Shown here one piece after another: positions 10,314 through 21,369 of a stretch of 24,253 nucleotides of DNA. The stretch lies in the IMG/VR virus record IMGVR_UViG_3300042691_019199, positions 1-24,253 of that record; one strand, written 5' to 3'. The DNA comes from a virus. Position numbers and translations under genes: made by a program. The notes under the pieces are model-generated. The model had not been told where the DNA came from, did not search any database, and was given only the letters and a program-made list of their open reading frames with translations. Positions within the stretch are counted from its first letter, which is position 1. Every line of letters starts with the position of its first letter.

Positions 10314-10678
10314 AGTCGTTTCTCCAGCACCACACAGGTGCGACGGTATCCGTCAAGCGCTCGCTCCCACCCGGGGCGGCCCATTATCAACATCGTGTCG
10401 CAGCCGATGCTGCGCGCCCACGTCTCAATCATCGGCCGCAGCTCGTCGTCGATCTCGTGCAGGTCGCCCGCGCCGATGATGACCGTTAGCTGCTTGATGC
10501 GGGGGAACAGGTCCACGGTCGTGATGACCACGGAACCCTCGGCGGCCCACAGCTGGTACTCGCCCGAGCGTATCCCCTCAAGTACATCCTCGTACCCCAT
10601 CTGACCGTAACCTTCGGCGAGCCCCCTCTCTATGAGCTCGCGGAACTTCACGGCCGGCATGATCTCCTCGCCGATCAT
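10310..10678 (-). CDS. GNAT-like conserved phage protein
   Basis: A 122-residue protein; the longer frame to 11086 is only a shadow of the upstream gene, and ATG 10678 overlaps that gene's stop (ATGA). The sequence has alternating strand/helix character with WAAEGSVVITTVDLFP, LTVIIGAGDLHEIDDELRPMIETWARSIGCDTM and RPGWERALDGYRRTCVVLEKRL. The aromatic-rich end (GW..AL.GYR...VLEK) recalls small GNAT-like phage proteins encoded beside ejection proteins; T7 gp13 is a comparable GNAT-like case. No clear acetyl-CoA-binding pyrophosphate loop is evident, so enzymatic activity is doubtful. A morphogenesis role is more likely. Confidence 0.6.
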   Translation of the reverse strand: MIGEEIMPAVKFRELIERGLAEGYGQMGYEDVLEGIRSGEYQLWAAEGSVVITTVDLFPRIKQLTVIIGAGDLHEIDDELRPMIETWARSIGCDTMLIMGRPGWERALDGYRRTCVVLEKRL

Positions 10679-12147
10679 CGCTCGCCGCCCGCGACGGCAT
10701 CGAGCCGCATCACACCGACGCGCCAGTCTGTCATCGAGTCCCCGGTGATCTTCATCTCGACCTGTCGGCCGCTGAACCTGACCGCAGTATAGGGCGAGTC
10801 GATGGTGTAGGTCTTGACGACCTCCGATCCCAGCGGCGTGAATCTCGTCTTGAACTGCACGCCCACCGCGCCCTGCGTGTTCTCGTCGGCGATGAGCTGA
10901 CGCGCGACCATGATACGGTCGCCGCCGCCGAACTCGATCGGCCCAGACTGAGCGTATGGCGTCGCTCCGTCGTAGGTGGCGCCGACCTCCTGCTCGTAGA
11001 TGTAGCCGTCCGCCGAGACCATCAGCGGGTAGGTGAACACGCCGCGGTCGGTCCCCGCCGTGCGGCCAAGGCTCCCGATGGTCCAATGCTGCTCGCGGTA
11101 GTTGTAGACCACATACGAGTCTACCTCAGAGTTTGAGGCGCTCGGGTAGAACCACCAGACCTCGCCGTACTGGTTGTTGGCGACCGCGTAGACCTTCGAG
11201 CGCTGCGTCTGCGAGAGGTTGTTGGTCACATAGTCCAGCACGTCGCACTTGATCGGGCGCACGAAGCCGTCGTAGGTGAAGAAGCCAGACGGCGACCACC
11301 AGAAGGCGACCGACTCCACCGCCGCCACGGCCTGGGCGCTGATGAGCCCGCAGCCGGTGGCGATGCGCTCGAAGCCATAGACGAACGGAGGGCCCTGGTA
11401 CTGGGCCGTGTGTACATCTACATCCGTGAATATGAGGTTCACGCCGCGCAGCCGCTTGCCCGCGACGATGCTGCCGACGCTCTCGAGCTCGATGTCGCCG
11501 GCCTGGTTGGTGATGGATGGCGTCCAGAGCGTGTTGTTCTCCTGGTCACACCATTGCACCTTGCGCGCGTTGCCGCCCGCGCCGAGCGCGAACACGAACC
11601 GCTCGGCCGTCACCATCACGGCCTTGTTGCTGACCGGTGCGTTGGCGAGCGCGGCCGCGTCTGAGCCGGTGTTGAGCTGCCACTCGAGGATCTTGCCGTC
11701 TGCGTTGGAGCAGGCAAGCAGATACTCGCCCCAGTTGTCGAGGCTCCAGGTCGTCGCCGGCGTCACGGTGCCGGTGTCGGGGCGCGGGGTGCCGTAGGAG
11801 AAGAGACCGTAGGGGCCGCCGCCATAGGCAAGGTTCAGCGTCGCGTCGGCGCTGCCCGGCGTGAACGACGCCGGGGTGATGTCGGTCAGCGTCCCGGCCT
11901 CGTTCATCGCGTAGAGGTTCGAGTGCGTCCCGGCGGCGATCCAGCGCGCGTTGGCGTTGGTGCGCCAGGTGAGGAGCCCGCGGCACTTGCCGGTGAGCTG
12001 GCTGCTCGAGCGCTTGCGCCACCCGCCAACGGGTCGCATCGTGCCCTCGTACCAGCGCACGAGCGAGGCGTCGCGCCAGCGGCTCTTGCTCTGGTAGTCG
12101 GTGCCGTTGCGGTACACGCCCGGCTGGATGTTGATTGGTACGAGCAT
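10675..12147 (-). CDS. Tail-nozzle / DNA-stabilisation-like structural protein
   Basis: Start at ATG 12147 with AAGGAG upstream, giving 490 residues; the ORF extends 38 codons further upstream into the previous gene. The N-terminus (PINIQPGVYRNGTDYQS, RWRDASLVRWYEGTMRPVGG) is typical of a widespread podovirus structural family. It is followed by repeated beta-rich segments with WSPSGFFTYDG, VWWFYPSASNSEVDSYVVYNY and WTIGSLGRT, which look like beta-propeller blades. Such proteins close the portal/adaptor channel as tail-tube/nozzle or packaged-DNA stabilisation proteins (compare P22 gp10 and T7 gp12 roles). The position after the fibre block and before ejection proteins agrees. The exact orthology is inferred, not aligned. 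Confidence 0.7.
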   Translation of the reverse strand: MLVPINIQPGVYRNGTDYQSKSRWRDASLVRWYEGTMRPVGGWRKRSSSQLTGKCRGLLTWRTNANARWIAAGTHSNLYAMNEAGTLTDITPASFTPGSADATLNLAYGGGPYGLFSYGTPRPDTGTVTPATTWSLDNWGEYLLACSNADGKILEWQLNTGSDAAALANAPVSNKAVMVTAERFVFALGAGGNARKVQWCDQENNTLWTPSITNQAGDIELESVGSIVAGKRLRGVNLIFTDVDVHTAQYQGPPFVYGFERIATGCGLISAQAVAAVESVAFWWSPSGFFTYDGFVRPIKCDVLDYVTNNLSQTQRSKVYAVANNQYGEVWWFYPSASNSEVDSYVVYNYREQHWTIGSLGRTAGTDRGVFTYPLMVSADGYIYEQEVGATYDGATPYAQSGPIEFGGGDRIMVARQLIADENTQGAVGVQFKTRFTPLGSEVVKTYTIDSPYTAVRFSGRQVEMKITGDSMTDWRVGVMRLDAVAGGER

Positions 12148-12149
12148 CG

Positions 12150-12374
12150 TCACTCCTTCGGGAGGAACCAGCCTTTGAACATTCCGGTGAGCAGCGCGAT
12201 GGCGGCCGCGAGTCCGGCGAGCCACTTGACGAAGGCGACGAGCGTCTCGGCCGTCGCCCATGCGTTTGCGAGCTTCTTCAGATCGCCCTTCACCTCGGAC
12301 ATATCCGACTGAAGGGCCTCTAGATCCTTTCGCAAGAGCGCGATCTCCACGGCATCATTCCGTTCGTCTGACAT
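12150..12374 (-). CDS. Coiled-coil plus C-terminal membrane helix protein (XhlA/holin-like)
   Basis: A 74-residue protein: a charged heptad-like N-terminal half (LLRKDLEALQSDMSEVKGDLKKLANAW) followed by a hydrophobic C-terminal helix (about 47-66, VKWLAGLAAAIALLTGMF) and the short tail KGWFLPKE. This is the layout of XhlA-type haemolysin/holin-associated proteins. It is encoded about 8 kb from the main lysis cassette, between fibre and nozzle genes, so it could be a second holin component, a pinholin-like regulator, or a membrane-interacting virion protein. The stop lies two bases before the next gene's ATG, and the downstream gene's AAGGAG is inside it. Confidence 0.6.
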   Translation of the reverse strand: MSDERNDAVEIALLRKDLEALQSDMSEVKGDLKKLANAWATAETLVAFVKWLAGLAAAIALLTGMFKGWFLPKE

Positions 12375-12710: not shown

Positions 12711-14417
12711 TTATTTGCTCTCCAATGCGGCGAACTTCGCCTCAAGTTGTTCGATACGGGTCATGGCTTCTTGCAGGGCTTTAGTTAGCAGCGGAACCAC
12801 ATTGGCTGCGCCAACGCTTTGATACACCGGGTCGCCGTTCTCGTTTACGGCATCCTTTTCACCCGCTACAGCAATCGGCACAACTTCCTGTAATTCGTGA
12901 GCAACAAAGCCCTCTGACTCAAGCCCGTTTCGCTTCCAGTTCCATTTTACAGGCTTCAATTGCGCCAAACGATCAAGCGCGTTTTCAATCGGTTGAATGT
13001 TTTCTTTTAACCGATAATCCGACGAGGTTCCGTAAGTCGTCGTGCCGCCGCTAAAAGTGATTTCGCCTTGGCGTGTGCCATCGCCGTCGTCAAAAACCAG
13101 CGCATAGTTGGTGCCAGCGGCATTGTCTGCGCCGCATTGAATTGACATTCCATATCGGTTTGCATTGTTTCCGTCATTAACAATTCTAAAAATGTATGCG
13201 TTAGCGGAATCGCCTACAAACTCGTGATACAAACCGGATGAACTAATGTATGCGGCATTTGCTTGCGCTTTGAAATAACCGTCGCTCGTGATGCGGGCGC
13301 TTTCGGTGGCGCTAGTCTGAAAAGTAAGCACAGACCCGTTGATATTCAACTGCTGATACGAACCAGTCAGCGTTGAGTCAACACCGTGAATAGTGGATGC
13401 GCCGCTGCTGAACGTACCGCCGTTGTCAAAGCGGATGCCGTAGGTGCCGCCAGAGATACCAGCAGTGATTCCGTCACCGCTGCGAACTGCTTGGAATCTG
13501 TATGAGGGCGAACTCGTCCCGATGCCGAGGTTGCCGGAGGTGTCGAGGAACATACGCGGCGTATTGTCCGGCGAGAATCGAATTCCTCGCACGCCGGAAG
13601 TCGTACCAATAACAAGCGCGTCGCTGTAGTTGGACTCAATGTAACCGGATCGACCTGCCGCAACGTCGTCTGTAATCGTGATGCGAGTTGCTGCTGCGGT
13701 ATTTGAAACGTGCAACTTGCTTGCAGGCGAACTCGTCCCGATGCCCAACCCCGTCGAGGTGAGGCGCATAAATTCGGCATCGTTATTGTCAACAAATGCC
13801 AAGCCGGGAGTGTTCATAAATTTGATGCGCTGTGGATTACTTCCAGCAACATCACGCAAATACAAAGTAGCGTTTTGACCGGCTACAGTGTTATTTACAA
13901 CAAGACCATTTGCGTTTGCCGACGCAACAACCATTTGCCCACTACCTACCGTAGGGTCTGAACCGTTAACAGCGAGTTGGCTTCCATTAAATACCAGCGC
14001 ACTCCCACTCGTCGCCGCCTTGCTGCCGTTCAAGTACAACACGCCGTTGGCGGTGCCGCCGTTAAGCGTGAGGTTGCCGGAGAGCGTAGCAGCCGCCGCG
14101 CTCACCGTGCCGGTGAGGGTGGGAGATCCGGCGAGCACGTTGTTGCCGGTGCCGGTGTTCGTGACCGAGACCACGTTCTTGCTGGCATCGAGCGCGAGCG
14201 CCGTCGACGCCGTGAGCGCCGACATATTCTGCGTGCCGCCGACCGTCAGCGTCTTGCCGGTGCCTACGTTGAGGCCCACCGAGGTGCCGCTGCCTGCGCC
14301 GGTGAAGATCCCGTCGACGAGATCGAGGTTGGTGTTGATCTTGCCGCCCCAGGTGTCAGCGCTCGCGCCGACTTCCGGCTTGGTGAGGCCCAGGTTGGTG
14401 GTTGTCGTATCAGCCAT
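12711..14417 (-). CDS. Tail fibre / receptor-binding protein with C-terminal S74 chaperone domain
   Basis: A 568-residue protein. The N-terminal attachment part ([37 protein letters not shown]) is a common fibre anchor motif. It is followed by Gly/Thr/Ser/Asn-rich beta-repeats, including two GLGIGTSSP-type elements (SSPASKLHV and SSPSYRFQA), then a distal domain (about 320-460) and an S74 domain (463-568): [36 protein letters not shown] and a terminal coiled coil ([20 protein letters not shown]). S74 domains trimerise the fibre and then self-cleave near the conserved Ser466. GC content falls sharply from about 14000 leftward, so most of the fibre shaft, distal part and S74 domain were probably exchanged while the anchor was kept. 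Confidence 0.85.
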
Positions 14418-14426
14418 GTCGTTACC

Positions 14427-15272
14427 TCAAGCGGCCTGTAAGTAGGCCGGGTGTGTCTTCTCTGTCCAAGTCTCCGCCGTGTCTGCGACCGGCGCCCATG
14501 TCTCTGCGGTGTCCGCCACCGCGCCCCAGGCGACGACCGTATCGCTCGCCGCGCTCCAGCTCTCCGCCGTGTCAGCCAGCGGCGTCCAGCTCTCGGCCGT
14601 GTCCGGCTGCACTTCCCATTTCAGCCGCCCGGCGGCCGATAGAGCCGCCGATCCCGAAAGCGCCGCCGCCGCCGACTGTATGACCCCGCCCGCCGCCGCC
14701 AGGGCAGCCGACCCAGAGAGGGCCGCGCTGTCGATGTAGACAACATTCGCGGTCGCGGTCTGCGTCGCCGTCCCAGAGAGCGCCGCCGCCCCGAGCCGTA
14801 CCCTTACCCCCTCGGCCGCCTGGCTCGCCGCCCCAGACATCGCCGAGGCCGCCAGCCGCACCCGCAGCGCATCCGCCGCGAGCGTGGCCGCCCCAGAGAC
14901 CGCCGCGGCGCCTAGCCGCACTCGGACCCCTGCGGCCGCCAGAGAGGCCGTGGCGGCCATCGCCGCCGCGCCGTCGCGCACTATGCTCGACGAGCACGAC
15001 AGCGCCCCAGAGGCCGCCAGAGACGCCGAGGCGTCCTCTACGATGACCGCCGCGGCCGTCTGCGTCGCAGAGGCCGACATGGCGCTCGCAGCCAGATGCA
15101 CCCGCACCCCGACCGCCGTCACCGTCGCGGCGCCACTCACGGCCGCCGCCCCCAGCGCCACCCTCACGCCTACGCAAGAGAGCGAGGCGGCCGCGCTTAA
15201 ACTGGCAGCGCCCTCTTTAGGGTCGATGCCATAGTTGCCACGGCCGTATAACCCGGAGCCGTAGCCTGCCAT
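14427..15272 (-). CDS. Repeat-built Ala-rich protein beside the tail fibre
   Basis: Start at ATG 15272 (a TTG one codon upstream is possible), 281 residues. An N-terminal Gly/Tyr segment (MAGYGSGLYGRGNYGIDPKE) is followed by nine consecutive 20-residue units (residues about 37-216), each of the form RVRLGAAAVSGAATLAADAL, and then five 10-residue units (224-273) of the form DTAESWTPLA. Units keep length exactly while diverging in sequence. Ala/Ser/Val-rich 20-residue repeats suggest an extended beta-solenoid-like or fibrous stalk; the Trp-containing decapeptides could be a second stalk or binding module. The position between a small tail protein and the fibre suggests a virion appendage. I know similar N-termini from other phage genomes but no established function. 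Confidence 0.75.
   Translation of the reverse strand: MAGYGSGLYGRGNYGIDPKEGAASLSAAASLSCVGVRVALGAAAVSGAATVTAVGVRVHLAASAMSASATQTAAAVIVEDASASLAASGALSCSSSIVRDGAAAMAATASLAAAGVRVRLGAAAVSGAATLAADALRVRLAASAMSGAASQAAEGVRVRLGAAALSGTATQTATANVVYIDSAALSGSAALAAAGGVIQSAAAALSGSAALSAAGRLKWEVQPDTAESWTPLADTAESWSAASDTVVAWGAVADTAETWAPVADTAETWTEKTHPAYLQAA
14454..14603 (-). repeat. Five 30-bp tandem coding repeats (DTAESW decapeptides)
   Basis: Five in-frame 30-bp units coding DTAESWTPLA, DTAESWSAAS, DTVVAWGAVA, DTAETWAPVA and DTAETWTEKT. On the plus strand the phrase gtgtc(c/t)gc...gtctc recurs at 30-base steps. Unit 3 is the most diverged. Copy number could vary between relatives by slippage or recombination. 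Confidence 0.85.
14625..15164 (-). repeat. Nine 60-bp tandem coding repeats (20-residue Ala-rich units)
   Basis: 540 bases read as nine units of exactly 20 codons. Examples are RVALGAAAVSGAATVTAVGV, RVRLGAAAVSGAATLAADAL, RVRLAASAMSGAASQAAEGV and RVRLGAAALSGTATQTATAN. The recurring plus-strand phrase gccccagagac/catcgcc marks the SG(A/T)A core. Units 4 and 5 (starting IVED and IVRD) are more divergent. Confidence 0.85.
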
Positions 15273-15275
15273 CAA

Positions 15276-15659
15276 TTAATCCAGCGTGATGTCGAGATCG
15301 CCCGCCGGGACGCGGAACACATCGCCCGAGGCGATCGTCTTGCTCGCGGTCAGCGCGCCGTGGAACAGAAGGTTCCCGCCGGTAAGGTTGTCCCAGACCG
15401 CGACCCAGCCGACCGTGCCCCAAGAGCCCGTCGCGGTCGGGAACTCAATGGCCGAGGTGTTCGAGGCCGCGTTGCCGGAGATGGTCGAGGCGAACGACTG
15501 GCGCGCGTAGCTGCCGCCGCTCACCTCCGTGCCAGATCCGGCGTCGGTCGGGTCGGCCGTGTGAAGCCCCAGGTAGACTGTCGCGGGCGATGTGTACGCC
15601 GTGTTCGACAGCACATGGAGGAGAATCTTGTTCTCAAGATAGTTGGAAAATGCACTCAC
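15276..15659 (-). CDS. Small conserved tail/fibre-like structural protein
   Basis: A 127-residue protein with a GTG start overlapping the adaptor stop (GTGA). It begins SAFSNYLENKILLHVLSNTA and contains SPATVYLGLHTADPTDAGSG, EVSGGSYARQSF, FPTATGSWGTVGWVAVWD and GDVFRVPAGDLDITLD. This is a frequently seen phage structural family, often annotated as tail fibre or head-tail protein. The fold is predicted beta-rich after a short N-terminal helix. The role in the virion is inferred from position between adaptor and the fibre cluster; it is not an enzyme by any visible motif. Confidence 0.7.
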   Translation of the reverse strand: MSAFSNYLENKILLHVLSNTAYTSPATVYLGLHTADPTDAGSGTEVSGGSYARQSFASTISGNAASNTSAIEFPTATGSWGTVGWVAVWDNLTGGNLLFHGALTASKTIASGDVFRVPAGDLDITLD

Positions 15660-16288
15660 GGGATAACCCTCGTCGGTTTGACTTTCATGGACAGGCGCCC
15701 CTGGCTGAATGCCGCGCGCTCGTTTTGTATGATCATGTCTTCGATCGCCTGCGCGTAGAGCGGGGTCCAGAGGCCCACGCGCTCGTCGTCGCGCAAGTAC
15801 GGAGCCGCCTGCAAGAGCGACCCATAGAGATACACATCGGGGTGCCGCTCGAGCACCCAGTTGGATGCGTTGGAGTCGGAGAGCTTGGCGAGCGTCGCCA
15901 CATAGGTGAGCTCAGCCGTGTACCCGGTGTCGGGCGGCGGGAGCACCTCGATCTGATTGCCGACCAGCGCAAAATACCGCGGCTTGCCGGTGGTGCGGTA
16001 GATCGACTTCTTGGCGTCGAGCTCGTCCTCGGAGAGGAACTCAAGCGGCTGCACCGGCGCCGTCGAGGTCAGCACCAGAGACTTGGCGGAAAGGAAGTCC
16101 GCCGGGAGCGCAGAGAAGGGCGTGTCGATGGTCGCGTCTGCACGCTTGACCATCTTCTGCGTCGGCAGCCGACGCTCAATCTGCGCCTCCGCCATCGAGA
16201 TGAAGTCGGGGATGACCGAGGTCAAATCGTCCCGGTTCAGCCAGTCGGCGAGGGACGCTTTAAGCGCGCTGTATGACGTTAGTGCCAC
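15656..16288 (-). CDS. Head-tail adaptor protein (SU10-adaptor / P22 gp4-like position)
   Basis: A 210-residue protein with a GTG start (16288) that overlaps the glycosyltransferase end by 29 bases; AAGGAG lies 10 bases upstream. The helical N-terminus (YSALKASLADWLNRDDLTSV then IPDFISMAEAQIERRL) is characteristic of the phage adaptor family that docks beneath the portal ring. The central beta region has LEFLSEDELDAKK and GNQIEVLPPPDTGYTAELTYVA, and the C-terminal helix LWTPLYAQAIEDMIIQNERAA. The gene order portal, scaffold, coat, adaptor matches other podoviruses. I am fairly confident of the family, less so of exact stoichiometry or partner. Confidence 0.75.
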   Translation of the reverse strand: MALTSYSALKASLADWLNRDDLTSVIPDFISMAEAQIERRLPTQKMVKRADATIDTPFSALPADFLSAKSLVLTSTAPVQPLEFLSEDELDAKKSIYRTTGKPRYFALVGNQIEVLPPPDTGYTAELTYVATLAKLSDSNASNWVLERHPDVYLYGSLLQAAPYLRDDERVGLWTPLYAQAIEDMIIQNERAAFSQGRLSMKVKPTRVIP

Positions 16289-16928
16289 CGTCGGTCTGCT
16301 CCTTCATCGCCCACGCACCCTCGTGCGAATACTCAAAGGTGCCGATGTGCTTGACGTGCTGCGAGAGGTCGTGGTCCACCAGGACCTCAAAGCCTGCCTC
16401 CTTCGCCTTGCGGCAGAAGTAGACATCCTCTCCGATGTAGTGGTTGCCGACCGTCGAATACGGGATGGCAAACCACGGCGCGTCCAGCTTCTCGAACACC
16501 TCACGCTTGACCATCATCACGCCCATTCCGACGTAATCGACGGCCTCGAGGCCCTCCGACCCGGGCGCAGTAAACACCCGGTCAATCTTGCCGGCCGCGT
16601 CTCGCATCGCCACCGGCTTGACCGGCATACGGCGCGTCGAGTAATTCGCGGCCACGATCGGCTTGTCGCGCAGGATGAGGTGGCCGATGGTTTCCCTCGG
16701 GAACCTCATGTCAGAGTCGAGCCAGAGAAGATAGTCCGCCTTCTCCGCCAGCGCCTGCTGCGCAAGCTCCATCCGTTGAGAGGCGATCAGAGTCCCGTGG
16801 CTGGTGTAAAGCAGCACACGGTCGTCCGTTGTCGCGGTGTGGTACGACATCGCGCGCGCCATATCATAGGCAAACGATGTCATCACCGTGTCCCTTGCGG
16901 GGACCAAAATCGCAACCGACCGGCTCAT
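16260..16928 (-). CDS. GT-A fold glycosyltransferase within the head-gene block
   Basis: The start is ATG 16928, overlapping the previous stop (ATGA); the ORF could extend further only by running through that gene. It has 222 residues: an N-terminal Rossmann-like region (SRSVAILVPARDTV), IASQRMELAQQALAEKADYL, a DxD-type metal/nucleotide-sugar motif DSD (71-73) in YLLWLDSDMRFP, YVGMGVMMVKREVFEKL, and GEDVYFCRKAKEAGF (166-180) followed by His191 and His194. These are the canonical elements of family-2-like glycosyltransferases, which transfer sugars from nucleotide-sugar donors. Similar genes occur in several phages. Its target could be a virion protein, host surface glycan or modified DNA base; placement between capsid and adaptor genes favours virion glycosylation but does not prove it. 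Confidence 0.8.
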   Translation of the reverse strand: MSRSVAILVPARDTVMTSFAYDMARAMSYHTATTDDRVLLYTSHGTLIASQRMELAQQALAEKADYLLWLDSDMRFPRETIGHLILRDKPIVAANYSTRRMPVKPVAMRDAAGKIDRVFTAPGSEGLEAVDYVGMGVMMVKREVFEKLDAPWFAIPYSTVGNHYIGEDVYFCRKAKEAGFEVLVDHDLSQHVKHIGTFEYSHEGAWAMKEQTDGGTNVIQRA

Positions 16929-17245
16929 ACACGCCCCGGTCGAGTGCGGAAGAATCTGTTGTCGGCGTCGTTGAGCCAGGCCTTCATGCGCTTCGGATCG
17001 TCTGCGATCCCGTCGCGCTTGAGCCGGTAGTACAGGGGCATCGGAATCGACGCTACCTTGCTCCACTCGCCCCACCGGGACCGCTCGTCGGTCTCGGCGT
17101 ATGCTCTCTTATTCTGCTCAATCAGGTTGCCGGTCTCAAAGACCGTCTCGATGGTCGCCTCGTCGCGGTCGGCATTGTAGTGCCACCATTTCGTGGTTCC
17201 CGTCTCGGGGTCAAAGTCGAATAGTCGCTTACCTGTCGAGCTCAT
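16925..17245 (-). CDS. Conserved 106-residue phage protein downstream of the capsid gene
   Basis: The start is ATG 17245 with a GAGGG just upstream. The protein contains RLFDFDPETGTTKWWHYNAD, EATIETVFETGNLIEQNKRAY, RSRWGEWSKVASIPMPLYYRL, and ends DDPKRMKAWLNDADNRFF then RTRPGRV. This pattern is recognisable as a conserved family in many phage head-gene clusters, but no function is assigned to my knowledge. It is rich in Trp, Asp and Arg and looks like a small globular protein. It lies directly after the stem-loop that follows the major capsid gene and overlaps the glycosyltransferase start. Confidence 0.7.
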   Translation of the reverse strand: MSSTGKRLFDFDPETGTTKWWHYNADRDEATIETVFETGNLIEQNKRAYAETDERSRWGEWSKVASIPMPLYYRLKRDGIADDPKRMKAWLNDADNRFFRTRPGRV

Positions 17246-20217: not shown

Positions 20218-21369
20218 TCACCTCATTTCAAAGCCAAAGTCGTCCACAAACATATCACGGCTTGGCCGATAGAACGGAGACTCAATCTGCGCGGGCACGA
20301 ATGGCATCGGCTCCGGCGCATAGGTCTGCATCGGCGGGATGTAGGGCTGCGGCTCAAAGACGGCTGGCTCGAATGATGGCACGAATGGCGCCATCACCGG
20401 CGGCTCGTAGAAAGCCGGGGCCATCGGAGGGGGCTCGTAGAGCATTGGAGCGGGAGGGGGCGGCGCGTAGAAAGTCGGCGCCATCGGGGGCGGCTCGTAG
20501 AAGGTCGGCGCAGGAGGAGGCGGCTCGTAAAAAGTCGGCGCGGGAGGAGGCGGCGCGTAGAGCATTGGAGCAGGAGGCTCGTAGAATGTCTGGGCCATCG
20601 GAGCCGACTGCACGGGCGTGTCCTGCTGCTGCACCGGCATGATCGAATCAAAACCCTGCGCGGCAGGCGCCATCGGCGCCTCACTCTTGGCCGGCAGGGT
20701 TTGATCAAAAGGGAACGAGAACCCCCCCATGTACGGTTGCGGCGCGAACGGGCTTGGCTGGAACTGCTGCGGTCCCATCTCCACTTGCCCTCCGCCATAA
20801 ACCGGCGACGGCGGCGCGCTGCCGAAGCCGGGCGCCATCTGCGGGGGCTGCGGCTGCGGAGCGGGCTGCGCTTGGGGCGTCCCTTCCGGCTGGAAATAGT
20901 CCTCGAACATCTGACGCAGCTGGCGCCCGCCGCCGCGACGACCGCCGCGACGACCGCCACCAAAGCCGCCGCCATACCCGCCGCCGCCAAACATCGACGT
21001 CGCCGCGAACGGGTTGAAGGCTGGGCCGCCGTAGTATTGCTGCGAGAAGTAATTGCTGAAGGCATCGTTGATGGTCGGCTGGTAGGCCGGCGCGCGCATC
21101 CCGCCGCCGTAACCGCCAAAGCCGCCACCGCCGCCCATGTCATAGCCGCCGAACTGCGTGCCGTAGCCGCCCATTCCGCCGCCGCCGAAGCCGCCGAAGC
21201 CGCCCATGCCGGAGAAGTCGCGGCTCGCGTCAAAGCCGCCGCCGTAGCCGCCCATGCCGCCACCAAAAGGCGACCCATATCCGCCCATTCCGCCGCCGTA
21301 GCCGCCGCCATAGCCTCCCATCATGGGACCTTGGGCAAACTGTCGTTGACCCGAAAATGCGTTACTCAT
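20218..21369 (-). CDS. Low-complexity Gly/Tyr-rich, RGG-box and Pro-repeat protein
   Basis: A 383-residue protein with extreme composition. Residues about 14-95 are a GYGGG/GFGGG-rich tract (MGGYGGGYGGGMGGYG and on). At 100-125 lies a more ordinary aromatic segment (NDAFSNYFSQQYYGGPAFNP). 127-149 returns to GGGGYGGGFGGGRRGGRRGG, containing RGG-like boxes, followed by a short helix (QLRQMFEDYFQ). 161-260 is Pro/Gln-rich. 261-328 is seven tandem decapeptide-type units (MLYAPPPPAP, TFYEPPPPAP and on). The end (RDMFVDDFGFEMR) is acidic-aromatic. It is predicted almost wholly disordered. The start at ATG 21369 lies 7 bases after the previous stop. No known phage family comes to mind; position among head genes suggests a virion or assembly function. 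Confidence 0.8.
   Translation of the reverse strand: MSNAFSGQRQFAQGPMMGGYGGGYGGGMGGYGSPFGGGMGGYGGGFDASRDFSGMGGFGGFGGGGMGGYGTQFGGYDMGGGGGFGGYGGGMRAPAYQPTINDAFSNYFSQQYYGGPAFNPFAATSMFGGGGYGGGFGGGRRGGRRGGGRQLRQMFEDYFQPEGTPQAQPAPQPQPPQMAPGFGSAPPSPVYGGGQVEMGPQQFQPSPFAPQPYMGGFSFPFDQTLPAKSEAPMAPAAQGFDSIMPVQQQDTPVQSAPMAQTFYEPPAPMLYAPPPPAPTFYEPPPPAPTFYEPPPMAPTFYAPPPPAPMLYEPPPMAPAFYEPPVMAPFVPSFEPAVFEPQPYIPPMQTYAPEPMPFVPAQIESPFYRPSRDMFVDDFGFEMR
20386..20589 (-). repeat. 30-bp tandem coding repeats (APxFYEPPP decapeptides)
   Basis: Six full 30-bp units (20386-20565) plus one shorter 24-base unit (to 20589). Each encodes a variant of (T/A)FYEPPPPAP or MLYEPPPMAP. On the plus strand ggctcgtag or ggcgcgtag recurs every 30 bases. 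Units differ mainly at T/A/M-F/L and E/A positions, so copies have diverged under protein-level constraint. Confidence 0.9.

What the first reader, a model, noticed from the sequence alone, without database searches (positions are those of the whole stretch)
14427..15272. Protein built of nine exact 20-residue and five exact 10-residue tandem units
Unit length is strictly kept (60 bp and 30 bp) while sequence diverges, so length per repeat is under structural selection. It lies immediately upstream of the receptor-binding fibre in the operon and may be a variable-length stalk or adhesin-like appendage. The two repeat types in succession suggest two stacked modules.
Basis: partly seen in the sequence, partly recalled or inferred. 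Interest (0 to 1): 0.6.

Follow-up and report, generated by a model that had tools for sequence, protein, structure and literature searches.

The report
Twenty-residue-repeat partner of fibre protein gp80
A phage gene encodes a protein made of exact 20-residue repeats whose number differs between relatives, and proteins with the same period sit beside one particular fibre-building protein in very different phages, so it may be the cord on which that fibre's beads are strung.

Summary
The repeats are real. The ORF is on the minus strand (window 14427-15272): a conserved N-terminus, nine 20-residue units, a KW junction, five 10-residue units (six Trp, 10 apart), and a short tail. Periodicity is far above shuffles.

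In 69 distinct complete relatives the distance from N-terminal motif to KW is always 14 mod 20 and every Trp spacing is 10. Unit number varies (2, 6, 7, 9, 10, 11), and Trp number is 4 or 6, never odd, so the C-terminal module also changes in 20-residue steps. The C-terminal module recombines apart from the core.

The new point is the partner. The gene directly upstream is PF23140, "Podophage GP4 fiber I protein gp80". In unrelated phages gp80-like genes also have a lag-20 repeat gene next to them (15 of 104 neighbours; 5 of 1,172 ORFs in 120 random viral loci). The only two random loci holding gp80 are the only two with a strong period-20 ORF.

Best reading, inferred: it is the cord of a gp80 bead chain like GP4 fibre I, with unit number limiting bead number. 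Binding is not shown, two proteomes did not report the homologue, and AlphaFold2's beta-solenoid is uninformative for such repeats.

The parts
14427..15275 (-). repeat protein ORF (282 codons from TTG 15275; ATG at 15272)
   Evidence: no Pfam or PHROG match for this protein
15213..15272 (-). conserved N-terminal motif MAGYGSGLYGRGNYGIDPKE
   Evidence: mostly invariant or nearly invariant columns in A1 (39 sequences)
15174..15212 (-). partial first unit (13 residues, second part of a 20-residue unit)
14634..15173 (-). nine 20-residue (60 bp) tandem units
   Evidence: lag 20 z = 14.5; TRF 60-bp array 14765-14942
14616..14633 (-). AGRLKW junction; first Trp
   Evidence: KW invariant in A1; boundary between core and separately exchanged C-terminal module
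14466..14615 (-). five 10-residue (30 bp) units, each ending in Trp (with the junction six Trp, 10 apart)
   Evidence: TRF 30-bp array 14466-14605
14427..14465 (-). C-terminal tail TEKTHPAYLQAA and stop
15276..15659 (-). gp80-like protein (PF23140, Podophage GP4 fiber I protein gp80), proposed bead
   Evidence: Pfam E = 1.4e-48; PDB 8jou chain a, 10 chains, E = 6e-14
15656..16288 (-). tail adaptor (SU10_adaptor)
   Evidence: Pfam PF24175 E = 1e-36
12711..14417 (-). tail fibre with [19 protein letters not shown]-terminus and C-terminal intramolecular chaperone (Peptidase_S74)
   Evidence: Pfam E = 4e-13; a fibre with this N-terminus follows in 68 of 69 relatives
10675..12261 (-). nozzle-type virion protein (phrog_3287)
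   Evidence: PHROG label 'virion structural protein'; 'nozzle' is my inference

Best explanation
The ORF encodes the cord ('rope') of a bead-on-a-cord tail fibre. Its upstream neighbour, the gp80-like protein, is the bead. Each 20-residue unit offers one docking site with beta-strand character for gp80, so the number of units limits how many beads a fibre carries and thus its length. The N-terminal YG motif and the C-terminal Trp module are the two ends, one of which would join the tail collar or the next fibre protein. Unit number changes by gain and loss of whole units, and the C-terminal module is swapped separately. Shown here: the repeats, the fixed period, the varying number, the modular swapping, the gp80-repeat-fibre gene order, and the association of period-20 proteins with gp80-like genes in unrelated phages. 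Inferred: physical binding to gp80, the one-unit-one-bead rule, and which end attaches where.
For: Gene order gp80-repeat-fibre: gp80 lies 13-67 bp upstream in 68 of 69 distinct relatives and the [13 protein letters not shown]-type fibre starts directly downstream in 68 of 69 (exceptions L072 and contig end L060). Period 20 follows gp80 into other phages: neighbours of gp80-like genes with lag-20 z>4, 15 of 104 (one locus per gp80 cluster, 57 clusters) against 13 of 299 other ORFs in the same loci (p = 0.001) and 5 of 1,172 ORFs in 120 random viral loci (p = 2e-13). Converse test: gp80 profile hits occur in 2 of the 120 random loci (L376, L433), and these are the only two with an ORF of best lag 20 and z>5 (hypergeometric 1.4e-4). 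Named phages: repeat gene next to gp80 in BcepIL02, POI1126, MEP401, MW202879, MW202462, Whirlwind, Laurie, each z>7. gp80 is a fibre component: PDB 8jou holds 10 chains of it; PMC13243795 section 16 describes 8JOU_g as forming a fibril that joins an adhesin to the nozzle collar in GP4, and as a dimer. Recalled, not seen: the abstract of J Mol Biol 2023 168258 describes fibre I of GP4 as five gp80 dimers linked by an elongated rope protein.
Against: No binding shown. No PDB chain resembles the repeat protein or its Burkholderia counterparts, so the GP4 rope chain could not be compared. The JC1 virion proteome lists gp53 (gp80 homologue) but not gp54 (the repeat protein) (PMC9144972 passages), and the phiM5 record marks the gp80 homologue and the fibre, but not the repeat protein, as detected in particles. 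Most gp80 clusters (42 of 57) have no z20>4 neighbour; Venkman, Mvi-JY20, X1, Lietuvens and PVJ1 have no clear adjacent repeat gene. In-phase repeat profiles match the window's in only 10 of 22 cases and in none of the Burkholderia, rhizobial or mycobacterial ones, so the shared feature there is the period, not detectable sequence. Odd unit numbers (7, 9, 11) do not fit a rule of two units per gp80 dimer.
Confidence: 0.55

Rival explanations
1. A self-folded three-sided beta-solenoid stalk (20 residues per coil) that spaces the downstream S74 fibre from the tail; gp80 is merely a neighbour in the operon.
For: AlphaFold2 gives strands recurring every 20 residues; for the relative L138 the core reaches a block-mean pLDDT of about 73-95, for the window protein 42-71 over the repeats. 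Large hydrophobics recur at unit positions 6, 12 and 19, spacing 6-7-7, as in a three-sided coil.
Against: The same program made solenoids from 36 of 50 models of random 20-residue units repeated ten times (PMC11795689 section 3.1). No PDB match with E<=0.001 for either model. A solenoid gives no reason why period 20 should track gp80-like genes across phages. Ten coils would span only about 5 nm (established rise of about 4.8 A per coil).
Confidence: 0.25
2. A trimeric fibre shaft or receptor-binding adhesin of its own, with the Trp module as tip.
For: It sits among fibre genes; the C-terminal module recombines freely, as tips do.
Against: The C-terminal Trp module is among the best conserved parts (W220 and W270 invariant over 39 sequences), the opposite of a receptor-binding tip; no lectin or fibre domain.
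Confidence: 0.1
3. A non-virion assembly factor that counts or orders gp80 during assembly (a measuring chaperone) and leaves before maturation.
For: Homologues not reported in JC1 virions or marked in phiM5 particles, although gp80 was.
Against: BcepMigl gp57 and BcepIL02 gp56 are annotated 'virion associated' by their depositors (basis not seen). Alanine-rich repeats may give few peptides.
Confidence: 0.1

Closest known systems
Fibre I of Ralstonia podophage GP4 (gp80 dimers on a rope; Pfam PF23140, PDB 8JOU)
   Same: gp80 homologue next to the repeat gene; fibre gene after it; GP4 fibre II is ORF78 (PMC11966396 section 3.3.3, read), which leaves gp79 for the slot between (inference)
   Different: The GP4 genome was not in the collections (a relative, also absent) and no rope sequence could be compared; the window phage is SU10-like in capsid, portal and adaptor
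Repeat gene next to gp80 in Bcep22-like phages (BcepIL02 gp56, BcepMigl gp57, JC1 gp54)
   Same: same slot, similar length, lag 20 (BcepIL02 z 8.0; JC1 lags 22 and 20; BcepMigl z 3.2)
   Different: no significant in-phase profile similarity (BcepIL02 p = 0.42); no Trp module
Minor tail proteins upstream of gp80-like genes in mycobacteriophages (Whirlwind gp23, Laurie gp33)
   Same: lag 20, z 7.9 and 7.6, directly adjacent to the gp80-like gene (PF23140 for Whirlwind)
   Different: upstream, not downstream; repeats joined to a Gly_rich_2 domain
Octadecabacter DB virus 2 gp11 ('ribonuclease E') and the 439-residue ORF of L072
   Same: same C-terminal Trp module
   Different: lag 22 repeats (z 11.4 in DB virus 2) and not next to gp80
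Beta-solenoid adhesins and stalks
   Same: short tandem beta-rich units in an AlphaFold2 model
   Different: no PDB match with E<=0.001

Membership tests
GP4-type fibre I (gp80 bead chain) | gp80-family bead protein encoded with it | tested here: met
   PF23140 E = 1.4e-48 directly upstream; 68 of 69 relatives
GP4-type fibre I (gp80 bead chain) | elongated partner chain running through the beads (recalled from the GP4 abstract) | tested here: inconclusive
   repeat protein is the candidate by position and by period association; no PDB chain similar; binding not testable here
GP4-type fibre I (gp80 bead chain) | attachment to the tail at a collar around the adaptor | not testable with these tools
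   needs a virion structure
Same protein family as the Bcep22-like repeat genes | in-phase 20-residue profile similarity | tested here: not met
   BcepIL02 z 0.1, p = 0.42
Same repeat family as the genes in MW202879, MW202462, MW202481, MEP401 | in-phase 20-residue profile similarity | tested here: met
   z 5.5-8.0, p = 0.0005 each
Beta-solenoid | confident coil with 20-residue rung | tested here: inconclusive
   program bias documented in PMC11795689

The most novel reading that the evidence does not exclude
A general rule of phage fibre building: gp80-family beads are strung on cords whose amino-acid period is fixed at 20 residues whatever the sequence, and fibre length is set by a unit count that evolves by gain and loss of whole units. 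The cord would be a protein ruler for an external fibre, spread over podoviruses and siphovirus-type mycobacteriophages.
Probability: 0.35. Interest if true: 0.8.

Novelty: new variant of a known kind. Interest (0 to 1): 0.6.

Why it matters
If true, a large set of unannotated, low-complexity phage proteins gets a role and a partner, and fibre length in these phages can be read from a gene by counting 20-residue units. It would also warn against taking AlphaFold2 beta-solenoids of such proteins at face value, and it offers a possible explanation for the unexplained poor beta-helix next to the gp80-like gp35 in phage LSH1 (PMC13243795 section 16).

Tried and rejected
Pfam, PHROGs and PDB sequence searches with the repeat protein gave nothing useful (PHROG scan of 39 relatives: phrog_31951 in 8 and phrog_32822 in 2, both weak). 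Foldseek against PDB gave no match with E<=0.001 for either model; BFVD gave five with E<=0.001, four named only as uncharacterised proteins of uncultured phages and one without a name. A genome-contig scan gave one relative, L084, in a MAG labelled Anaerolineales, so no host is inferred. A rule of two units per gp80 dimer was dropped because unit numbers 7, 9 and 11 occur. Homology of all period-20 neighbours was tested and not supported for 12 of 22. L072 was counted in the 69 but is not canonical: its N-terminal motif lies inside a longer ORF, so counts without it are given as 68. A search for a published account of tandem repeats in mycobacteriophage minor tail proteins found no paper with its four terms; a search with 'rope protein' found none holding that phrase among its five listed papers. 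These are narrow searches of open-licence papers only.

Full report
What is there. The ORF runs on the minus strand from 15275 (TTG; ATG at 15272) to 14427. It reads: an N-terminal motif MAGYGSGLYGRGNYGIDPKE, a 13-residue partial unit, nine 20-residue units (14634-15173), an AGRLKW junction, five 10-residue units each ending in Trp (14466-14615), and TEKTHPAYLQAA. Lag 20 in the core has z = 14.5 and lag 10 in the C-terminal part z = 9.4, against maxima of 4.6 and 4.7 over all lags in 2,000 shuffles. Units are 15-80% identical in protein and 43-73% in DNA, so they are old; the length is what is kept.

Relatives. A scan of viral contigs kept the best 80 of 142 relatives (79 loci), a second kept the best 80 of 348, and genome contigs gave one. 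After removal of incomplete and identical proteins, 69 distinct complete ones remain. The regular expression also caught nozzle-type proteins and one Gly-rich protein, listed in that call, which were set aside because they lack the KW motif; loci L129 and L146 gave no N-terminal motif and were not counted. In 69 of 69 the distance from the YG motif to KW is 14 mod 20, and all Trp spacings are 10. Without L072, which is not canonical, the 68 have 2 (1), 6 (1), 7 (27), 9 (8), 10 (30) or 11 (1) core units by this count, which includes the partial unit, and 6 (56) or 4 (12) Trp. The C-terminal part thus also moves in steps of 20. The sample is of best matches, with many near relatives, so the numbers describe occurrence, not frequency.

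Modularity. Of 895 pairs with equal tail length, 25 have tails at least 95% identical but last-60 core residues under 60% identical. L018 and L033 share the tail at 99% DNA identity, with 30% in the last 60 core residues, 77% in the 150 bases downstream and 65% upstream. L018 and L043 share 98% of the core but have tails of 64 and 44 residues. So the two modules are exchanged separately, and units are gained or lost whole.

Surroundings. The window is a 24,253-base virus record with SU10-type portal, capsid and adaptor. Directly before the repeat gene lies a gp80-like protein (PF23140, 'Podophage GP4 fiber I protein gp80', E = 1.4e-48; PDB 8jou, 10 chains), directly after it an S74 fibre. This order holds in 68 of 69 relatives on each side. 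PF23140 is in 0 of 14 control genomes.

gp80 and period 20. I looked at the ORFs beside gp80-like genes in named phages (26 records, 49 adjacent ORFs of at least 90 residues, 189 others). Adjacent ORFs with z>6: 7 of 49; others 7 of 189. The adjacent ones with the highest z are MW202879, MW202462, MEP401, BcepIL02, POI1126, Whirlwind and Laurie, all with lag 20 or 40; in the two mycobacteriophages the repeat gene is upstream. Records without a clear adjacent repeat gene: Venkman, Mvi-JY20, X1, Lietuvens, PVJ1, MW202496 (third ORF, lag 21), DB virus 2 (third ORF, lag 22). Gmala1, phiM5, PBC5, JC1, BcepMigl, Itty13, Atu_ph08, P3MA and C72C1 are weak to middling; CRP-4 and CRP-5 show lag 8. In MW202481 the gp80 gene is cut by the stretch fetched, and its repeat gene (z 11.2, lag 20) lies some 6 kb on.

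I then took 160 gp80-anchored viral loci (each capped at its best 80), 159 with a readable gp80 ORF, in 57 clusters at 70% identity. With one locus per cluster, chosen by the number of ORFs and not by the result, lag-20 z>4 holds for 15 of 104 neighbours and 13 of 299 other ORFs in the same loci (p = 0.001; z>3 16 against 18, z>5 13 against 10). The positive 'other' ORFs are themselves within about 3.5 kb of gp80, so this control is a hard one. Against 120 loci drawn by two arbitrary sequence words (1,172 ORFs) the neighbours stand at 15 of 104 against 5 of 1,172 (p = 2e-13). In these random loci a gp80 profile hits two loci only, L376 and L433, and exactly these two hold an ORF with best lag 20 and z>5 (1.4e-4). 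In L376 the repeat ORF lies about 0.7 kb, in L433 about 1.3 kb, from gp80, on the same strand. I count this as the strongest single result, with the reserve that it rests on two loci.

Is it one family? In-phase 20-column profiles match the window's (p<=0.011) in 10 of 22 compared proteins and not in 12, among them all Burkholderia, rhizobial and mycobacterial ones. Either they have diverged beyond this test or only the period is shared.

Mechanism. GP4's gp80 is a fibre component; a 2026 paper describes 8JOU_g as forming a fibril between an adhesin and the nozzle collar, and as a dimer (PMC13243795 section 16). From memory only, the GP4 paper describes five gp80 dimers linked by an elongated rope protein; it is not held here. 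GP4 fibre II is ORF78 (PMC11966396 section 3.3.3), so gp79 would fill the slot that the repeat protein has in the window; that is an inference from numbers. On this basis I propose that the repeat protein is the cord, each 20-residue unit a docking site, and the unit number a limit on bead number. If each unit holds one gp80, the cord must be extended in the fibre, since solenoid coils are too close together (about 4.8 A, established) for a 127-residue bead each.

Structure prediction. AlphaFold2 gives recurring strands at block-mean pLDDT 42-71 over the repeats for the window protein (mean 52.7) and about 73-95 for the core of L138 (mean 73.9), with the Trp module under 50 in both. Because 36 of 50 models of random 20-residue units repeated ten times gave beta-solenoids with the same program (PMC11795689 section 3.1), I give this little weight.

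Against the model. The JC1 proteome text (passages) lists the gp80 homologue but not the repeat protein; the phiM5 record marks its gp80 homologue and fibre, not the repeat protein, as detected. BcepMigl gp57 and BcepIL02 gp56 are annotated virion associated, on a basis I did not see. Binding to gp80 is untested.

Noticed in passing
window 20218-21369 (-): ORF with a Gly/Tyr-rich first half and PPxPTFYEPP-type tandem repeats (TRF 30- and 60-bp arrays at 20399-20577); no PHROG match. A second repeat protein in the same operon.
   Followed up: no
window 10675-12261 (-), and the nozzle-type protein of L077 near 11357: The nozzle-type protein carries YGGGPYGLFSYG (GYGVGLYGAGYYG in L077), resembling the N-terminal YG motif of the repeat protein. 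Could hint at a shared docking surface.
   Followed up: partly
window 16260-17075 (-): Glycosyltransferase-like ORF (Pfam Anp1 E = 5e-6, below its cut-off) inside the virion gene block.
   Followed up: no
L072 2666-3985: 439-residue ORF with about 22-residue repeats fused to the same YG motif and Trp module, three ORFs away from gp80.
   Followed up: partly
L081 5642-7168 (MW805364 gp11): Annotated 'ribonuclease E' but made of 22-residue repeats with the same Trp module; the name looks wrong.
   Followed up: yes
L167 5411-5923 (Atu_ph08): Unannotated repeat-like ORF in the slot after gp80; the record instead shows an ORF on the other strand.
   Followed up: no
L376 reverse strand 1200-2149: Two gp80-like ORFs near one 639-residue repeat protein, which could make a mixed bead chain.
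   Followed up: no
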